64,000 bases of DNA from Pseudomonadota bacterium (GTDB taxonomy: Bacteria; Pseudomonadota; Gammaproteobacteria; Xanthomonadales; Xanthomonadaceae): NCBI GenBank assembly GCA_018242445.1, contig JAFEBW010000028.1, forward strand, positions 1-64,000, in the 5' to 3' direction. Under the pieces are notes generated by a model. The model was not told where the DNA came from, made no database searches, and saw only the letters and a program-made list of their open reading frames with translations. Shown here one piece after another: positions 114 to 57,263 of the stretch. A program made the translations under genes and the position numbers. Numbering within the stretch: position 1 is the stretch's first letter; the number at the start of each line of letters is the position of its first letter.

Positions 114-533
114 TTACAAGGGGAAGCAGGGGCCTGTGGTTACGACGTGATCGTTCTCAAGCCCCTCCCCCCTCGTGGGGGAGGGGTTGGGGAGAGGGGG
201 GGCTTGCGCAATGCCCAGATGCCGAAGGATGTGTTCGAGAACCGCTTCGGGCTGGCCCAGGATTTCGTGATTCCAGAATCGCAGGATCCGGAATCCCTGC
301 GCCTTGAGCCACCGATCGCGCTCGACATCATGCGCCGACTCGTTGTGTTGTCCGCCATCGGCTTCCACGATCAGGCGTGCGCCAAAGTGCACGAAATCCA
401 CGATGTAGGGCCCGATGGGTTGCTGGCGGCGAAATTTTTGATCGAGCAGGCGATGCGCGCGCAGGTGGTGCCAGAGCAGGCGCTCGGCATCGGTCATCTG
501 GGTGCGGAGCTTCTTCAAGAAGCGGTCGGTCAT
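114..533 (-). CDS. DUF559 endonuclease-like protein with REP-encoded C-terminus
   Basis: About 139 residues from the ATG at 533; an in-frame ATG at 554 would add seven residues that are REP-derived. The core matches the DUF559 family, a small fold related to very-short-patch-repair nucleases: an FRRQ-x-PIGPYIVDF segment, then LIVEADGGQH, then a G-F-R-I-L-R-F-W-N stretch. The Asp of VDF and the Glu of VEADG are the expected metal-binding residues. The biological role of the family is not established. The gene is enclosed by two inverted REP palindromes, and its last roughly 25 residues (rich in Pro, Arg and Gly) are encoded by one of them, so the natural C-terminus has probably been replaced or extended by the repeat. 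It is upstream of nothing obvious and lies just downstream of kbl on the same strand. Confidence 0.8.
   Translation of the reverse strand: MTDRFLKKLRTQMTDAERLLWHHLRAHRLLDQKFRRQQPIGPYIVDFVHFGARLIVEADGGQHNESAHDVERDRWLKAQGFRILRFWNHEILGQPEAVLEHILRHLGIAQAPPLPNPSPTRGEGLENDHVVTTGPCFPL
161..202 (+). repeat. REP-like palindrome, left member of inverted pair around DUF559 gene
   Basis: A perfect 10-base stem (162-171 with 177-186) with a 5-base loop, followed by a G-rich tail to about 202. The tail points toward the interior of the DUF559 gene. This copy lies inside the 3' end of that gene. Confidence 0.8.
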
Positions 534-9312: not shown

Positions 9313-9340
9313 GGGACTTACGATTCAACCTGCCTGGTAA

Positions 9341-9379
9341 GCCCCTCTCCCCTTGCGGGAGAGGGGTTGGGGAGAGGGG
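9341..9379 (+). repeat. Single REP-like palindrome after purF
   Basis: Palindrome (9341-9366) plus the tail TTGGGGAGAGGGG, in the orientation of the copy at 161-202. It lies 29 bases after the purF stop and 20 bases before the next ATG; no inverted partner is visible nearby. Confidence 0.8.
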
Positions 9380-24706: not shown

Positions 24707-26158
24707 TCATTTTCCGGACAGCTTCCGGAACCAACGCGCCATGCGCGCGCGCTGGCGCTGCCAGAAAGCATGCAGGCCGCCCCAGACGCCCGCCATGCGC
24801 CCTTGCGCCTGCCGTTGCGGTGCGGCCGGGCTCTTGCGCGCATCGGCCTTGCGGCGGGCCTGATCTTCGGCGTGGCGGCGGGCGCGTTCGCGTTCGGCCT
24901 GCTCCTCGGCCTGACGGCGGGCCTGTTCGCGTGATGCCACCTCGCGCGCGGCCTGCTCCTCGGCCTTGCGGCGGGCCTGTTCGCGTGATGCCGCCTCGCG
25001 CGCCGCCTGCTCCTCGGCCTGGCGGCGGGCCTGTTCGCGTGATGCCGCCTCGCGCGCCGCCTGCTCCTCGGCCTGGCGGCGGGCCTGATCTTCGGCGTGG
25101 CGGCGGGCGAGCTCGCGTTCGGCCTGTTCCTCGGCCTGGCGCCGGGCCTGATCTTCGGCGTGACGGCGGGCGCGTTCGCGTTCGGCCTGCTCCTCGGCCT
25201 GGCGATGGGCGAGCTCGCGCGCCGCCTGTTCCTCGGCCAGACGGCGGGCGTGTTCGCGCTCGGCCTGCGCCTGCTGGCGATGGTGCGCGATGGCGGCGGC
25301 CGAATGCGCCAGCGCGTTGGGCGCGGTCGTCCATTCGCTCGGTTCACCACCGATCACGGCGGTGGTCAGGCTGACGGCGAGGCGCTTGCCGCCGACTTCC
25401 ACCGGCATCGCCGCCACCTTCGCCTGCAAGCCAGCGGCCATGGACTCGACCCCGCGCAACTGGCCGCCCGGCACCGAGATCGCGAAGCCGCCCAAACCGA
25501 TGTGCGCCGCCGTGTCCTCGGCGCGGATGCGGCCGCTGATCAACTCGGCCACGCGCAGGACGATGGGCTCGACGACCCGATTGCCCAGGTGCTCGTACAG
25601 GGCCGGCAGATGGTCGATTTCCAGCCGCAGCAAGGCCAGGTCCAGCTTGTGGCGGCGGGCATACGCGATATCCTGCGCGAGCCGGTCGAGGAAGCCTTGT
25701 TCGTTGGCCAGTCCCGTGAGCGGGTCGAGCTTGCTCTGCGCCTGCAACTGCTGGCTGATGCGCTGGTACTTCGAGTGCGCGCGCGCGCGCGGCAGCAGCT
25801 CGCTGCTCAGGTATTTCTTGTTGAGGAAATCGGTCGCGCCGCGATCCAGCGCGGTCTGCCGGGCGGTTTCGTCGTCGTCGGCACCGGTGACCAGGATCAC
25901 CGGCATCGCGTTCAGGCCGGCGTCGTCGGAGGTGCGCACGCGCCCCAGCAGTTCGTAGCCGTCGCAGTTGGGCATGCTGATGTCGGAGAACATGACCTGG
26001 ATGCTGTGATCCTGCCCCAGCTTGACCCACGCATCCTGACCATCGACCGCGGTGACCACGTCGAATTCGGCGCTGAGGATCTTCGACGCCGTCTTCAACA
26101 GCACCTTGGAGTCGTCGACGAAAAGGATGCGTGTCGACGTGATGACCTGATCGTTCAT
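24707..26158 (-). CDS. Response regulator with degenerate GGDEF domain and long charged repeat tail
   Basis: 483 residues. Residues 9-125 are a receiver domain with the acidic pair VDD, phospho-acceptor D59 in FSDISMPNCDGYE, and Lys in FLNKKY. Residues about 140-275 follow the GGDEF fold (SKLDPLTGLANEQGF start), but the active-site signature is GLGGF at 221-225, so diguanylate cyclase activity is unlikely. Residues about 296-440 are tandem Arg/Glu/Ala/Gln repeats forming a long charged helix or coiled coil. The last 25 residues are Trp/Arg/Lys-rich (HAFWQRQRARMARWFRKLSG) and could bind membrane or nucleic acid. The partner may be the adjacent downstream gene. Confidence 0.82.
   Translation of the reverse strand: MNDQVITSTRILFVDDSKVLLKTASKILSAEFDVVTAVDGQDAWVKLGQDHSIQVMFSDISMPNCDGYELLGRVRTSDDAGLNAMPVILVTGADDDETARQTALDRGATDFLNKKYLSSELLPRARAHSKYQRISQQLQAQSKLDPLTGLANEQGFLDRLAQDIAYARRHKLDLALLRLEIDHLPALYEHLGNRVVEPIVLRVAELISGRIRAEDTAAHIGLGGFAISVPGGQLRGVESMAAGLQAKVAAMPVEVGGKRLAVSLTTAVIGGEPSEWTTAPNALAHSAAAIAHHRQQAQAEREHARRLAEEQAARELAHRQAEEQAERERARRHAEDQARRQAEEQAERELARRHAEDQARRQAEEQAAREAASREQARRQAEEQAAREAASREQARRKAEEQAAREVASREQARRQAEEQAERERARRHAEDQARRKADARKSPAAPQRQAQGRMAGVWGGLHAFWQRQRARMARWFRKLSGK
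24858..25260 (-). repeat. Tandem repeat array coding for the response regulator tail
   Basis: Three 54-base copies start at 24921, 24975 and 25029; two 63-base variants start at 25083 and 25146; a further related copy lies at about 24858. All periods are multiples of three. Near-identity between copies points to recent expansion. Confidence 0.85.
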
Positions 26159-42893: not shown

Positions 42894-43007
42894 CCTTCCC
42901 CCGCTTGCGGGGGAAGGTTGGGATGGGGGCGATTTCGCATAATGGATCTTTCGGAAAATCGATGGAATCTGCCCCCAGCCTAGCCCTCCCCCGCAAGCGG
43001 GGGAGGG
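42894..43007. repeat. Inverted REP pair between sufC and sufD
   Basis: Left palindrome 42894-42917 with tail to 42929; right tail from 42971 and palindrome 42984-43007. Both tails face inward. The two hairpins would lie in the suf transcript between sufC and sufD. The best preserved pair in the window. Confidence 0.85.
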
Positions 43008-51719: not shown

Positions 51720-54464
51720 ATGTCTTTCGTCGTTGCTTCGGCGGGCGCCGGCCAGCACCCGGCCGCGCCGCGCTTCATCGTGCTCAAGTTCGGCGGCACC
51801 AGCGTGTCCGCGCGTGCGCGCTGGGACACCATCGGTGCGTTGATGCGCGAGCGCGCCGCGCGCGAGGATGCGCGCGTGCTCACCGTGGTGTCGGCGCTGT
51901 CGGGCATCACCAATGCCTTGCAGGCGCTGATCGACGCGCATGCCGATCCGGCGGCGCGGACGCAACGCGCCGACGCCATCGCGCGCCGGCATCGCGAGTT
52001 CGCTGTCGAATTGGAACTGGATGCCGAAGCCGTGCTCGGCGAGCGCCTGCGCGTGCTCGATGAGTTGGCCCGCGATGCGCGCGCCGCGGGCGCCGACCTG
52101 GACTGGCAGGCGCAGGTGCTGGCGCAGGGCGAATTGCTATCGTCCACCCTTGGCGCTGCCTATCTGAAATCGCAGGGGTGTGATGTCGAATGGTTCGACG
52201 CACGCGATGGCTTGCGTGCGCTGGCCTTGCCGAACCAGAACGCGTGGGCGAAACGCCTGTCGGTGTCCTGCGAGTCGGCGCCCGATGCCAATCTGCGCAC
52301 GCGGATGGGGCAGGGTGCGCGGCTGCGCATCACCCAGGGCTTCATCGCCCGGCACGGCGATGGTGGCACCGCGATCCTCGGGCGTGGCGGCTCGGATACC
52401 TCGGCGGCGTATTTCGGCGTGCTGCTTGGCGCGCTGCGGGTGGAAATCTGGACCGACGTGCCGGGCATGTTCAGCGCCAATCCGCGGCAGGTTCCGGATG
52501 CGCGATTGCTGTCGCGGCTGGACTACGCCGAGGCGCAGGAAATCGCCACCACCGGCGCCAAGGTGCTGCACCCGCGCAGCATCCATCCCTGCCGCGATGC
52601 CGGGGTGCCGATCCGCATCCTCGACACCGCCAATCCGACGATGGCCGGTACCGCGATCGAACGCAGCGCGGCGACGGTGCCGGGGGTGAAGGCGATCAGT
52701 TCGCGGCGCGGCATCGTGCTGGTGTCGATGGAAACCATCGGCATGTGGCAGCAGGTCGGCTTCCTCGCCGATACCTTCGAGCACTTCAAGCGCCACGGCC
52801 TGTCGGTGGACTTGATCGGTTCCTCGGAGGCCAACGTCACCGTGTCGCTGGACCCGAGCGACAACCTCGTCAACTCCGACGTGCTCGATGCGCTGTGCGC
52901 CGATCTTGCGCAGGTGTGCCGGGTGAAGGTGATCGCGCCTTGCGCTGCCATCACCCTCGTCGGGCGCGGCATGCGCTCGCTGCTGCACAAGCTGGGCGAG
53001 GTGTGGGCGGAGTTCGGGCGCGAGCGCGTGCACCTGATCTCGCAATCCTCCAACGACCTCAACCTCACCTTCGTGGTGGACGAGTCCTTGCTCGACGACG
53101 ATGGCCCGCAGGGAACCATGGCGCGCCTGCATGCCTTGCTGATCGCATCCGGCGCGATGCCGGTGGATGAAACGGCCGTGTTCGGGACGAGCTGGCGCGC
53201 CTTGCAGGGCCAGCGCCGCGAACGCGCGCCGTCGTGGTGGCGCGGGCGACGGGATGCGTTGCTCGCGCAAGCAGCGAACGGCACGCCGCGCTACGTCTAC
53301 CATCTGGCGAGCGTGCGCGACCGCGCACGCGTGCTGGCGGCATTGCCGGCGATCGATCGGCGCTTCTATGCGCTCAAGGCCAATTCGTATCCGGCGATTT
53401 TGCGTGCGCTGGAAGCCGAAGGTTATGGCTTCGAATGCGTCTCCGGCGGCGAGCTGGATCAGCTGTTCGCGGTACTGCCGGCGCTGGCAGCCGCGCGCGT
53501 CCTGTTCACCCCGAGCTTCGCGGCACGCGATGAATACGCGCAGGCCCTGCGGCGCGGCGCACGCGTCACCCTCGACAGCACTTTTCCATTGAATCAGTGG
53601 CCAGACCTGTTCGCCGGACGCGACATCATCCTGCGCATCGATCCGGGCTTCGGCCACGGCCACCACGAGAAGGTGCGCACCGGCGGCAAGGGCGCGAAGT
53701 TCGGCCTCGACGCGCGAGCGTTGCCGGAGTTTCTCGATGCCGCGCGCGCCTGCCGTGCGCGCATCGTCGGATTGCACGCGCACATCGGCAGCGGCATCGC
53801 CGAGGTCGAGCACTGGGCGCAGGTGTATGCACGGCTGGCGGCGATCGCCGATGGCATCGGCACGGTCGCATCGATCGATGTGGGCGGCGGGCTGGGTATC
53901 GCCTACGAACCCGATGCCGAGCCCTTCGATCTGGCCGCCTATGGCGCCGCGCTGGCGCGGGTGAAATCGGCGTGCCCGCACTACGAATTGTGGGTGGAAC
54001 CGGGGCGCTGGCTGGTGGCCGAATGCGGCGTGCTGCTGGCGCGGGTGACGCAGGTGATCGAAAAGGCCGGCGTGCGGCGCGTGGGCGTGGATGCGGGCAT
54101 GCACACCCTGCTACGGCCGGCGCTGTACGGATCCTTCCATCACGTCGTCAACCTGTCGCGACTCGGTGACGTCGACACCGCGGCCTTCGACGTGGTCGGG
54201 CCGATCTGCGAGAGCGGCGACGTGCTCGCGCGGCGTCGTGCATTGCCGTTGGCGACCCGTGAAGGCGATGTGATGTTGATAGCCGATTCTGGCGCTTACG
54301 GGGCGGTGATGGCATCGAACTACAACCTGCGCGGTCTGCCGGCGGAAAGCGTGCTCGATGGGGACGAGTTCGCCGGGAGCGGGCCGGTCGAAACGGAGCG
54401 CGCTGAAGCGAAGGGGAACGAGGTCGTGAATTCCGAAAGCGAGCGTGCGGGAGGCGTGGCATGA
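51720..54464 (+). CDS. lysAC: Bifunctional aspartate kinase / diaminopimelate decarboxylase
   Basis: 914 residues. The N-terminal kinase (to about residue 480) has LKFGGTSVSARARWD, then LGRGGSDTSAAYFG and ACT-type regulatory segments (LVSMETIGMWQQVGF, RVKVIAPCAAITLVG). The C-terminal decarboxylase begins near 525; the PLP lysine is K553 in YALKANSYP, followed by GFECVSGGELDQL, HEKVRTGGKGAKFGLD, DVGGGLGIAY and GPICESGDVLA. The fusion joins the first and last steps of the lysine pathway and is known from Xanthomonas and relatives. Its stop overlaps the murL start by four bases. Confidence 0.95.
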   Translation: MSFVVASAGAGQHPAAPRFIVLKFGGTSVSARARWDTIGALMRERAAREDARVLTVVSALSGITNALQALIDAHADPAARTQRADAIARRHREFAVELELDAEAVLGERLRVLDELARDARAAGADLDWQAQVLAQGELLSSTLGAAYLKSQGCDVEWFDARDGLRALALPNQNAWAKRLSVSCESAPDANLRTRMGQGARLRITQGFIARHGDGGTAILGRGGSDTSAAYFGVLLGALRVEIWTDVPGMFSANPRQVPDARLLSRLDYAEAQEIATTGAKVLHPRSIHPCRDAGVPIRILDTANPTMAGTAIERSAATVPGVKAISSRRGIVLVSMETIGMWQQVGFLADTFEHFKRHGLSVDLIGSSEANVTVSLDPSDNLVNSDVLDALCADLAQVCRVKVIAPCAAITLVGRGMRSLLHKLGEVWAEFGRERVHLISQSSNDLNLTFVVDESLLDDDGPQGTMARLHALLIASGAMPVDETAVFGTSWRALQGQRRERAPSWWRGRRDALLAQAANGTPRYVYHLASVRDRARVLAALPAIDRRFYALKANSYPAILRALEAEGYGFECVSGGELDQLFAVLPALAAARVLFTPSFAARDEYAQALRRGARVTLDSTFPLNQWPDLFAGRDIILRIDPGFGHGHHEKVRTGGKGAKFGLDARALPEFLDAARACRARIVGLHAHIGSGIAEVEHWAQVYARLAAIADGIGTVASIDVGGGLGIAYEPDAEPFDLAAYGAALARVKSACPHYELWVEPGRWLVAECGVLLARVTQVIEKAGVRRVGVDAGMHTLLRPALYGSFHHVVNLSRLGDVDTAAFDVVGPICESGDVLARRRALPLATREGDVMLIADSGAYGAVMASNYNLRGLPAESVLDGDEFAGSGPVETERAEAKGNEVVNSESERAGGVA

Positions 54465-55894
54465 GCACGTTCCAGCGCGATGCCATCTCCACGTTCCGTT
54501 TCGTGCGTTGCTCGTTCGACTCCGCAACCGGCGTGGCGCGGCTGGTCTATGCCTTCGACGACGGCGAGGAGCTGGTCGAGACGATCGCGATCCCCGGCGC
54601 ACCGTTCGCGCTCGACGCGCAGCGCGCCGCCACGGTGGAGCGCGCTCTGCGGTTGCTGCACCTGATCGCCGGGGTGAGCTACTACAAGGCCGCCGTACCA
54701 GGTGGAATTCGCATCGATTCGTATGCCATCGATGCGGCGACGGCGCGCTTGCTGGAGTCGATCTACGAAAACGGGCTGGGCGAGTTCGCGTATCGCAATG
54801 GGATCGATCTGCGCGGGCGGATCAGGTTTCCGGCTGTTCACCCTTCTCCCAACGGGAGAAGGGCAGGGGATGAGGGGAGGGGTTACGATGGCACATCGGC
54901 TGCCGACCCCTCACCCCAACCCCTCTCCCGTAGGGAGAGGGGCTTGCAAGCACTCACCGCGATCGGCGGCGGCAAGGATTCGCTGGTCAGCATCGAAGCC
55001 CTGCGCGCGCTGGGCGTCGAACAGACGGCGACATGGATCGGCTCCTCGCCGCTGATCGCCGCCTGCGCGGCGCGCACCGGCTTGTCCACGCTCAACATCG
55101 GTCGTCAGTTGGCATCGCAGTTGTTCGAGTACAACCGGCAAGGCGCGTACAACGGGCATATCCCGGTCACCGCGATCAATTCGGCGATCCTCGTGCTGGC
55201 CGCGCTGGTGCGCGGGTTCGACCACGTCGTGTTTTCCAACGAGCGCTCGGCCAGCTACGGCAGCGAAATCCGCGACACCACCGGCACCATCGTTGCGCAG
55301 GTCAATCACCAGTGGTCGAAAGGCTGGGCATTCGAGCGCGACTTCGGCGAATACGTGCACGCACACGTCGCTCCGGGCGTGCATTACTGCTCGTTGCTGC
55401 GGCCGTTGTCCGAACTCGCCGTCGCTCGTCAATTCGCGAAAACCGATCGCTACGACGCGCACTTTTCCAGTTGCAACCGCAATTTCCACATCCTCGGCGA
55501 GAGGCCGGCGAACCGCTGGTGCGGGCAGTGCCCGAAGTGCCACTTCGTGTTCCTCGCGCTGGCCCCGTTCATGCCCAAGCCGCGCCTGATGGCGATCTTC
55601 GGGCGCAACCTGCTGGACGATCCGACGCTCGCATCGGGGTTCGATGCCTTGATCGAATACCGCGACCACAAACCCTTCGAATGCGTCGGCGAAGGCCGCG
55701 AGGCGCGTGCGGCCTTCATCGCTCTCGCGCAACGCCCGGCTTGGCGCGAGGATGCGCTGGTGCGGCGCTTCGCCCGCGAGATCGCCCCGCAACTGGGCGA
55801 GGTACCACCGCTGGAGAGCCTGCTGGCGCCCACCGGCGAGCACCGCATTCCTGCCGACTTGTGGGAGCGTGTGCGTGCGCATTTCGCAGCTTGA
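54461..55894 (+). CDS. murL: UDP-MurNAc-L-Ala-L-Glu epimerase MurL, with in-frame REP pair
   Basis: 477 residues. MurL changes the L-Glu that MurD2 adds to D-Glu in the peptidoglycan precursor, a route described in Xanthomonas. The ATP-binding segment is [15 protein letters not shown], with [13 protein letters not shown] and a C-terminal cysteine cluster, [16 protein letters not shown]. About 34 residues (about 127-161, rich in Pro, Arg and Gly) are coded by an inserted pair of REP palindromes at 54841-54942, in frame, just before the ATP-binding motif. Without it the length would be about 443. The start overlaps the lysAC stop and murD2 begins inside its end. Confidence 0.88.
54841..54942. 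repeat. Inverted REP pair inserted in frame within murL
   Basis: Left palindrome 54841-54863 with its tail to about 54882; right tail from 54907 and palindrome 54920-54942. Tails face inward. The unit is 102 bases, exactly 34 codons, and adds no stop in the murL frame. Confidence 0.88.
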
Positions 55895-57263
55895 AGGCCG
55901 CCGAGTCGCCCTCTGGGGCTGGGGCCGCGAGGCGCGTGCTGCGTGGCGCGCGCTGCGTTCGCGCCTGCCCGATCTGGAACTGACCGCGATCGTTTCGGAG
56001 GCGGAAGCCAACGAAATCGCAGCGCTTGCCGATCCGTTGCTGCAAGCAGCGACGACCGCCGACGCCGATGCGCTGTCGAAGTTCGATGTCGTCGTGAAAT
56101 CCCCGGGCATCAGCCCGTATCGCAGCGAAGTCGAACAAGCCAAGGCGAACGGTACGGTGTTCACCTCGGGCACCGCGTTGTGGTTCGCCGAGCGGCCCGA
56201 TGCGCGCGTCATCGCCATCACCGGCACCAAGGGCAAGAGCACCACCACCGCGCTGATCGCACACTTGTTGCGCGCTGAAGGGCATCGCACAGCGCTCGCG
56301 GGCAACATCGGTTTGCCATTATTGGAGTTGCTGGAACCTCCGCTGGCACCGGAATGCTGGGCTATCGAACTGTCGAGCTACCAGACCCGCGATGTCGCCG
56401 CGTCGGGCGCGCGCCCGGACGTCGCGGTCGGCTTGAACGTCTATCCCGAACATCTGGATTGGCATGGTAGCCACGCACGCTATGTCGACGACAAACTCGC
56501 CCTGTTCACCCAGGCACGCCCGCGCATTGCGGTCTTGAACGCGCTCGACCCTGCGCTCGCCGCGCTGAATCTTCCGGAGAGCAGCGTGCACTGGTTCAAT
56601 GCAGAACAGGGCTGGCACCTGCGCGATGGATACGTGTGCCGTGGTGCGGATCGTGTGATCGAGGCGACAGCGGTTCCCTTGCCCGGCAGGCACAACGGCT
56701 GGAACCTCTGCGCCGCGCTGACGGCAATCGAAGTGCTCGGCATCGACACGCACTCGCTCGTCGCACATGTGCAGGATTTCGTGCCGCTTCCGCACCGGCT
56801 GCAAACACTCGGCATGCGTGACGGCATCGTTTTCGTCAACGATTCCATCAGCACCACGCCGCATGCAAGCATCGCCGCGCTCGATTGCCATGCCGGCGAA
56901 GCCGTCGCGATCATCGTCGGCGGCTTCGATCGCGGCATCGACTGGTCGCCGTTCGTCGAATGCATGCGCACAAGGCCGGTACGCGCCGTCGTCACGATGG
57001 GCCAGAATGGCCCGCGCATCCATGCCGCGCTGCAAGCGCTTGCCGAAACAGGCAGCCTGCAACTGCATGCTGCGCGCGACATGGACGATGCCGTCGGAAT
57101 CGCAAGAACTGCATTGCCGCAGGGCGGAACCGTCCTGCTCTCGCCCGGTGCGCCAAGTTTCGGCGCGTATGTCGATTACGCAGCGCGCGGCCGCGATTTT
57201 GCAACCAAAGCTGGTTTCGACCCCGATGCCATCAGCCGCATCCCCGGGCTTGGCGTCGCCTGA
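55875..57263 (+). CDS. murD2: UDP-MurNAc-L-alanine:L-glutamate ligase MurD2
   Basis: 462 residues from the GTG at 55875, preceded by GGGAG at seven bases; the longer frame upstream is antisense-like sequence inside murL. It is a Mur ligase: N-terminal Rossmann part [15 protein letters not shown] loop [36 protein letters not shown] and the C-terminal [18 protein letters not shown]. In Xanthomonas this enzyme adds L-Glu, not D-Glu, and works with MurL. It overlaps murL by 20 bases. Confidence 0.92.

What the first reader, a model, noticed from the sequence alone, without database searches (positions are those of the whole stretch)
54841..54942. In-frame REP pair inserted within the essential-type gene murL
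A complete inverted REP pair of 102 bases sits inside the coding region just before the ATP-binding motif, adding 34 residues without a stop. The downstream protein is intact and murD2 follows, so the gene is probably still expressed. Palindromic elements that become protein segments are known in Rickettsia but are uncommon elsewhere. The mRNA would carry two hairpins inside a coding region.
Basis: partly seen in the sequence, partly recalled or inferred. Interest (0 to 1): 0.65.

Follow-up and report, generated by a model that had tools for sequence, protein, structure and literature searches.

The report
Mobile palindromes recurrently lengthen MurL linker
A short mobile DNA palindrome has become part of a cell-wall enzyme without breaking its gene, and related bacteria have had different, unrelated palindromes land in the same flexible joint of the same enzyme many separate times.

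Summary
An inverted pair of REP-like palindromes (54841-54942) lies in frame in murL (54461-55894), in a coil with pLDDT below 50 between an N-terminal domain and the PP-loop (IGGGKDS) core; the rest of the protein is conserved and under purifying selection. Among 191 family genomes whose linker I could read, 106 have a 17-residue linker, but 25 (14 genera) carry REP-type palindromes there, of seven unrelated motif classes, with about 20 changes on a MurL tree. Inverted repeats with arms of 22 nt or more occur in 14 of 191 linkers, in none of 708 kb of other coding DNA, and 36 times in 92 kb of intergenic DNA. Linkers without an insert show no RNA structure beyond their composition. ThiL, MetH and a DEAD-box helicase also carry in-frame REPs. 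Best reading: mobile palindromes insert widely, and disordered joints of essential proteins tolerate and keep the in-frame ones. In-gene REPs are already described (Di Nocera 2013); repeated capture of one joint by unrelated families is the new part. Expression and activity are untested.

The parts
54461..55894 (+). [quoted passage not shown]
   Evidence: NCBIfam NF041275, 771 bits against cut-off 700
54833..54949 (+). interdomain linker, residues 125-163 (39 aa; modal 17 aa in the family)
   Evidence: coil, residues 131-148 at pLDDT below 50
54841..54882 (+). first REP-like unit, stem CCCTTCTCCC/GGGAGAAGGG plus arm
54907..54942 (+). second REP-like unit, inverted with respect to the first; the arm with most relatives in the genome
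   Evidence: most matched rows cover query 56-102
54962..54982 (+). IGGGKDS, PP-loop ATP-pyrophosphatase motif, start of the core
   Evidence: I168-S174 invariant in 47 orthologues; PP-loop proteins in the structure comparisons
55878..57263 (+). murD-type ligase (MurD2 position); start inferred, overlaps the end of murL
   Evidence: TIGR01087 murD, 306 bits; ORF end

Best explanation
Mobile REP-like palindromes of several unrelated families insert across Lysobacteraceae genomes. Most in-gene copies are purged, but a disordered joint between two folded domains accepts extra residues if the length stays in frame and no stop appears, which GC-rich palindromes nearly always allow. MurL has such a joint between its N-terminal domain and its PP-loop core, so it has been hit and rewritten again and again; the window's copy is one case. 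Shown: the insertions, their repeat nature, their recurrence, intact frames, purifying selection on the core, disorder in the model. Inferred: neutrality of the insert, normal MurL activity, and the transposition step.
For: Recurrence: 25 of 191 readable linkers, 14 genera, seven motif classes (17 A, 1 B, 1 C, 1 D, 2 E, 2 F, 1 G); fewest changes on a MurL-core tree 20 (21 by class). Repeat nature: searched in their own 25 genomes with a joined query, at least 10 linkers show further copies of their own element in the rows listed. Place: REP motifs 73 in 13.2 kb of linker against 12 single short matches in 248.5 kb of the rest of murL. In 40 stretches of 20 kb, REP loci in coding DNA were 2, both in the murL linker. 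Permissive: linker poorly modelled; linkers also lengthen without a recognised REP motif (18 of 43 long ones); linker dN/dS 0.106/0.210 against core 0.009/0.163 in one pair. Frames: 114 of 126 frames of 21 own-genome copies are open. Core constraint: dN/dS 0.104/0.642 to G025. No RNA structure beyond composition in linkers without an insert (mean z -0.02, 40 linkers). Other proteins show the same.
Against: The linker holds more than intergenic DNA does: 14 linkers with long inverted repeats against 3.8 expected at the intergenic density of the 40 stretches, so plain tolerance may not be all. No expression or activity data. Classes B to G were defined on the linkers themselves, which inflates motif counts; the inverted-repeat count is free of this. 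One gene tree; changes cannot tell gain from loss.
Confidence: 0.78

Rival explanations
1. The hairpin is selected for: strong mRNA structure between two domains slows ribosomes and helps the N-terminal domain fold, or tunes murL-murD2 expression.
For: REP-bearing linkers fold far better than shuffles (mean z -5.6, 25 linkers); they lie exactly between domains; excess over intergenic density.
Against: 40 linkers without an insert have no structure beyond composition (mean z -0.02) and such linkers are the majority; REPs carry hairpins wherever they land; the MetH insert lies inside one Pfam domain, not between domains.
Confidence: 0.08
2. Target preference: the linker DNA itself attracts REP insertion, or an early element attracts later ones, so tolerance alone is not the cause.
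For: Excess over intergenic density; several elements stacked in one linker (G095; Lysobacter concretionis); class C begins at the same codon pair GTAGCC in two genera (L175, L238).
Against: Seven unrelated classes would all need the same preference; long linkers without REP motifs also exist; linker DNA is GC-rich but not unusually structured for its composition.
Confidence: 0.12
3. Assembly error or decay: the insert is an artefact, or murL is a pseudogene.
For: Draft genome of 65 contigs.
Against: Independent assemblies show in-frame inserts at the site; both text anchors lie in one frame in all 191 read linkers; core dN/dS about 0.16; no glutamate racemase hit to replace the route.
Confidence: 0.02

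Closest known systems
In-gene REPs of Di Nocera et al. 2013 (PMC3733652; abstract passages, section 15 and part 1 of section 17 read)
   Same: REPs inside real genes, in frame, often dimers of 20-30 residues; flexible linkers suggested; REPs in recB of X. campestris and X. oryzae at about the same site
   Different: One same-site pair in the sections read; here about 20 changes and seven unrelated classes in one linker of a cell-wall enzyme, with densities against coding and intergenic DNA
Rickettsia palindromic elements (seen only as passages in PMC3733652 and PMC10969869)
   Same: Palindromes translated in frame inside unrelated genes
   Different: Longer (about 150 bp) and of other families; in those passages not described as repeated hits of one site by unrelated families
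REPINs / RAYT-mobilised REPs (search listings and starts of abstracts only)
   Same: Inverted pair of short palindromes, dispersed in the genome
   Different: The window's element has no terminal GTAG or CGTC tag and no motif lies near the genome's one intact RAYT-like gene

Membership tests
REP-like palindromic repeat | short palindrome, multi-copy, dispersed | tested here: met
   22 matched rows in G000, E up to 2.5e-4
REP-like palindromic repeat | inverted (head-to-head) pairs | tested here: met
   a second whole pair at C58
GTAG/CGTC-tagged REP superfamilies | GTAG or CGTC at one end, outside the stem | tested here: not met
   read by eye in the window element and the further rows printed; GTAG occurs only in a loop. 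Classes B, C, D and F in other species do show such tags
REPIN (RAYT-associated) | RAYT gene flanked by the same repeat | tested here: not met
   Y1_Tnp ORF of 272 aa at C63 and a broken one at C9; no short class A motif in either locus, 1.5 kb each side
In-frame protein-embedded palindrome (RPE-like) | frame kept, protein conserved on both sides | tested here: met
In-frame protein-embedded palindrome (RPE-like) | segment present in the mature protein | not testable with these tools
   needs proteomics
MurL | match above the curated cut-off of the equivalog model | tested here: met
   771 against 700 bits

The most novel reading that the evidence does not exclude
Certain protein joints are true capture sites: they take up mobile palindromes several times more often than intergenic DNA, through target preference of the insertion machinery or selection for the hairpin or the longer joint, so that unrelated mobile repeats are a standing source of new linker sequence in essential enzymes of a whole bacterial order.
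Probability: 0.2. Interest if true: 0.75.

Novelty: new variant of a known kind. Interest (0 to 1): 0.52.

Why it matters
Di Nocera et al. left open whether in-gene REPs are neutral passengers or alter proteins. A single site hit about 20 times by unrelated families, with unhit relatives beside it, gives replicates: one can compare enzymes with and without inserts, measure tolerance of a joint, and ask whether insertion exceeds the neutral rate. It also gives natural MurL variants for a pathway proposed as a narrow-spectrum drug target (PMC8788868, passages read).

Tried and rejected
A common ancestral insert: rejected, since classes, frames and lengths differ between genera and within the window's genus. 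A conserved hairpin need: no structure beyond composition in linkers without an insert. Chance 9-mers as REPs: a two-motif rule and a motif-free inverted-repeat count were used. With arms of 15 nt the inverted-repeat test does not separate well: 17 of 191 linkers, but also 85 in coding DNA; with 18 nt, 15 linkers and 11 in coding DNA; with 22 nt, 14 and 0. Linking the element to the RAYT gene failed. Text anchors failed for part of the control genes: MetH 4 of 26 loci parsed and 13 of 26; helicase 15 of 28 and none of 13 retried; ThiL 21 of 30 loci, 19 of 29, 7 of 10. Those counts are lower bounds. No solved MurL structure by sequence, no Pfam family. Literature searches; none of the listings names REPs in murL, but supplementary files (Di Nocera's gene list) could not be opened, and only open-licence papers are held.

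Rows dropped: L146 and L303 are the same genome (G095), counted once; L238 (20 aa, class C) and L296 (17 aa, one class A motif) carried a motif but were left out of the 25; G041, G080 and G056 lacked the text anchor (short linkers by eye), G023 is cut by a contig end and looks REP-bearing by eye, G121 gave only a fragment; two of 198 genomes had no match. Three MurL matches were listed with one TGA inside (G128, G148, G165); the stop is not in the linker, and I did not follow it further.

Full report
What is there. The window lies in contig C20 of a 2.92 Mb draft genome of the Lysobacteraceae (family inferred from its relatives). murL runs 54461-55894 and meets the NCBIfam MurL model. Inside it, 54841-54942 is an inverted pair of REP-like units. 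RNA folding gives -80 kcal/mol, z -7.0, as one long hairpin. The same repeat is dispersed in the genome (22 rows). A MurD-type ligase follows and overlaps the end (start inferred). The genome has no hit to the glutamate racemase model, which does ring in 10 of 14 control genomes, so this route to D-glutamate is probably needed; essentiality itself is inferred.

Where it sits in the protein. An AlphaFold model on 47 sequences (mean pLDDT 82.8, pTM 0.86) shows an N-terminal domain (1-112), a coil from 113 to 162 with 131-148 under pLDDT 50, and a core from strand 163-167 that is followed by GGGKDS. The core resembles PP-loop ATPases, which fits the adenylation proposed for MurL in PMC8788868 (passages read). 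The insert therefore lies in an interdomain joint.

Orthologues. In one search, 196 of 198 family genomes had a match. I could read the linker in 191 (the dropped rows are listed under Tried and rejected). The linker is 17 residues in 106 and at most 20 in 139. It is 24 or more in 43. Twenty-five carry REP-type motifs, in 14 genera: class A as in the window (17), ATTCCCGC (1), GTAGCCCGGG (1), GTAGAGCCGAC with a 24-bp perfect stem (1), GGGACTGAAGTCCC (2), GGAGCG..CAG..GC (2) and a GGGACC array (1). Class labels are mine. Under the stricter two-motif rule there are 20 of 191. On a MurL-core tree without the linker (quick, LG+G4, 191 rows) presence needs at least 20 changes, 21 if classes are told apart. 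In the window's genus all four readable linkers differ; G025 has an unclassified palindrome (z -5.8), G068 only a weak single motif. Of 80 named orthologues (the best-scoring 80 of 565, so not an even sample), 15 carry a class motif, among them Lysobacter telluris, Rehaibacterium terrae, Pseudoxanthomonas sacheonensis, Luteimonas saliphila, Lysobacter concretionis and several Stenotrophomonas species. Outside the family, 12 loci of the order were read and three (L467, L468, L471) look REP-bearing at the same joint (by eye).

Are the inserts repeats of their own genomes? A joined query of 25 linkers (24 of the motif-bearing or long linkers' genomes plus others chosen by length; listed) against the same 25 genomes found 21 to 49 matches per genome; in the rows shown (the list is cut) at least ten genomes have further copies of their own linker element: G001, G027, G037, G040, G066, G090, G123, G128, G167, G183.

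Against coding and intergenic DNA. Forty stretches of 20 kb round murL, picked by me along the list for contig length, were annotated with my own simple gene caller: REP loci were 8 in 91.7 kb intergenic and 2 in 708 kb coding, both the murL linker. The motif classes B to G were found on linkers, so this count leans towards them. A motif-free test does not: inverted repeats with arms of 22 nt or more (85% or better) occur in 14 of 191 linkers, in 0 of the other coding DNA and 36 times in intergenic DNA. At the intergenic density 3.8 linkers would be expected (191 x 51 bp x 36/91,654). So the joint is at least as open to palindromes as intergenic DNA, perhaps three to four times more. Shorter arms separate less well (see Tried and rejected).

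Selection. Core dN/dS of the window gene is 0.104/0.642 to G025 and 0.112/0.680 to G068. In the pair G090/G138, which both carry a class A pair, the core gives 0.009/0.163 and the linker 0.106/0.210. The enzyme is constrained, the joint much less. Of 126 frames of 21 own-genome copies, 114 are open, against 75% for random DNA of 68% GC. Linkers without an insert are GC-rich (0.766 against 0.675) and rank 6th of 86 windows in fold energy, but not beyond composition (mean z -0.02 against -0.11 in controls, p 0.85). This speaks against a standing need for a hairpin.

Not only MurL. Of the 22 REP rows in the genome, in-frame places in real genes, beside murL, are a DEAD-box helicase (two units), a molybdopterin oxidoreductase, ThiL and MetH (Pfam; the MetH unit lies inside the activation domain). 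ThiL carries class A motifs at the same site in G000, G025, G095 and in two genomes of genus g22. MetH carries motifs or other repeat-like text at the same site in several genera. The helicase linker carries motifs in G000, G025 and G068. Many control loci could not be parsed, so these are lower bounds and no rate is claimed.

Known before. Di Nocera et al. 2013 (PMC3733652; abstract passages, section 15 and the first part of section 17 read) describe in-gene REPs in many species, suggest flexible linkers, and note one same-site case (recB in two Xanthomonas species). A 2024 review (passages) covers Rickettsia elements. The new part here is the number of separate hits and the number of unrelated families at one joint.

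Verdict. A real, in-frame insertion, one of many at this site. Most likely tolerated mobile DNA in a disordered joint; the excess over intergenic density is the unsettled point and the main reason to look further.

Noticed in passing
54461-55894 (model): MurL, said in PMC8788868 to lack known conserved domains, is modelled with a PP-loop core; the best structural match is QatC of the qatABCD anti-phage system (9y01_B, Z 13.7, rmsd 5.2, 313 residues, model range 8-440), then QueC (2pg3, Z 11.6).
   Followed up: partly
L305 (G000 C11), L306, L309, L327, L336: ThiL carries in-frame class A REPs at the same site in three genomes of the window's genus and two of genus g22.
   Followed up: partly
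L355 (G000 C56), L356, L357, L359, L360, L361, L364, L367: A loop of MetH's activation domain carries different repeat-like inserts in several genera.
   Followed up: partly
L385 (G000 C50:160-2199), L387, L396: The linker between the dimerisation and DbpA domains of a DEAD-box helicase carries two in-frame REPs here and others in relatives.
   Followed up: partly
L067 and L069 (Stenotrophomonas terrae and S. humi): Both have a single class A unit in the MurL joint but read in different frames that come back into register after the unit.
   Followed up: no
L175 and L238: A GTAGCCCGGG element starts at the same codon pair (GTA GCC) of the MurL joint in two genera, a hint of a preferred junction.
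   Followed up: no
window 160-199, 542-581, 9340-9379, 42894-43007: Further palindromic repeat units of the window; the pair 542-581 / 9340-9379 is perfectly complementary over 40 nt.
   Followed up: no
window 24838-25309: Coding-type direct repeats with spacings of about 24-54 nt.
   Followed up: no
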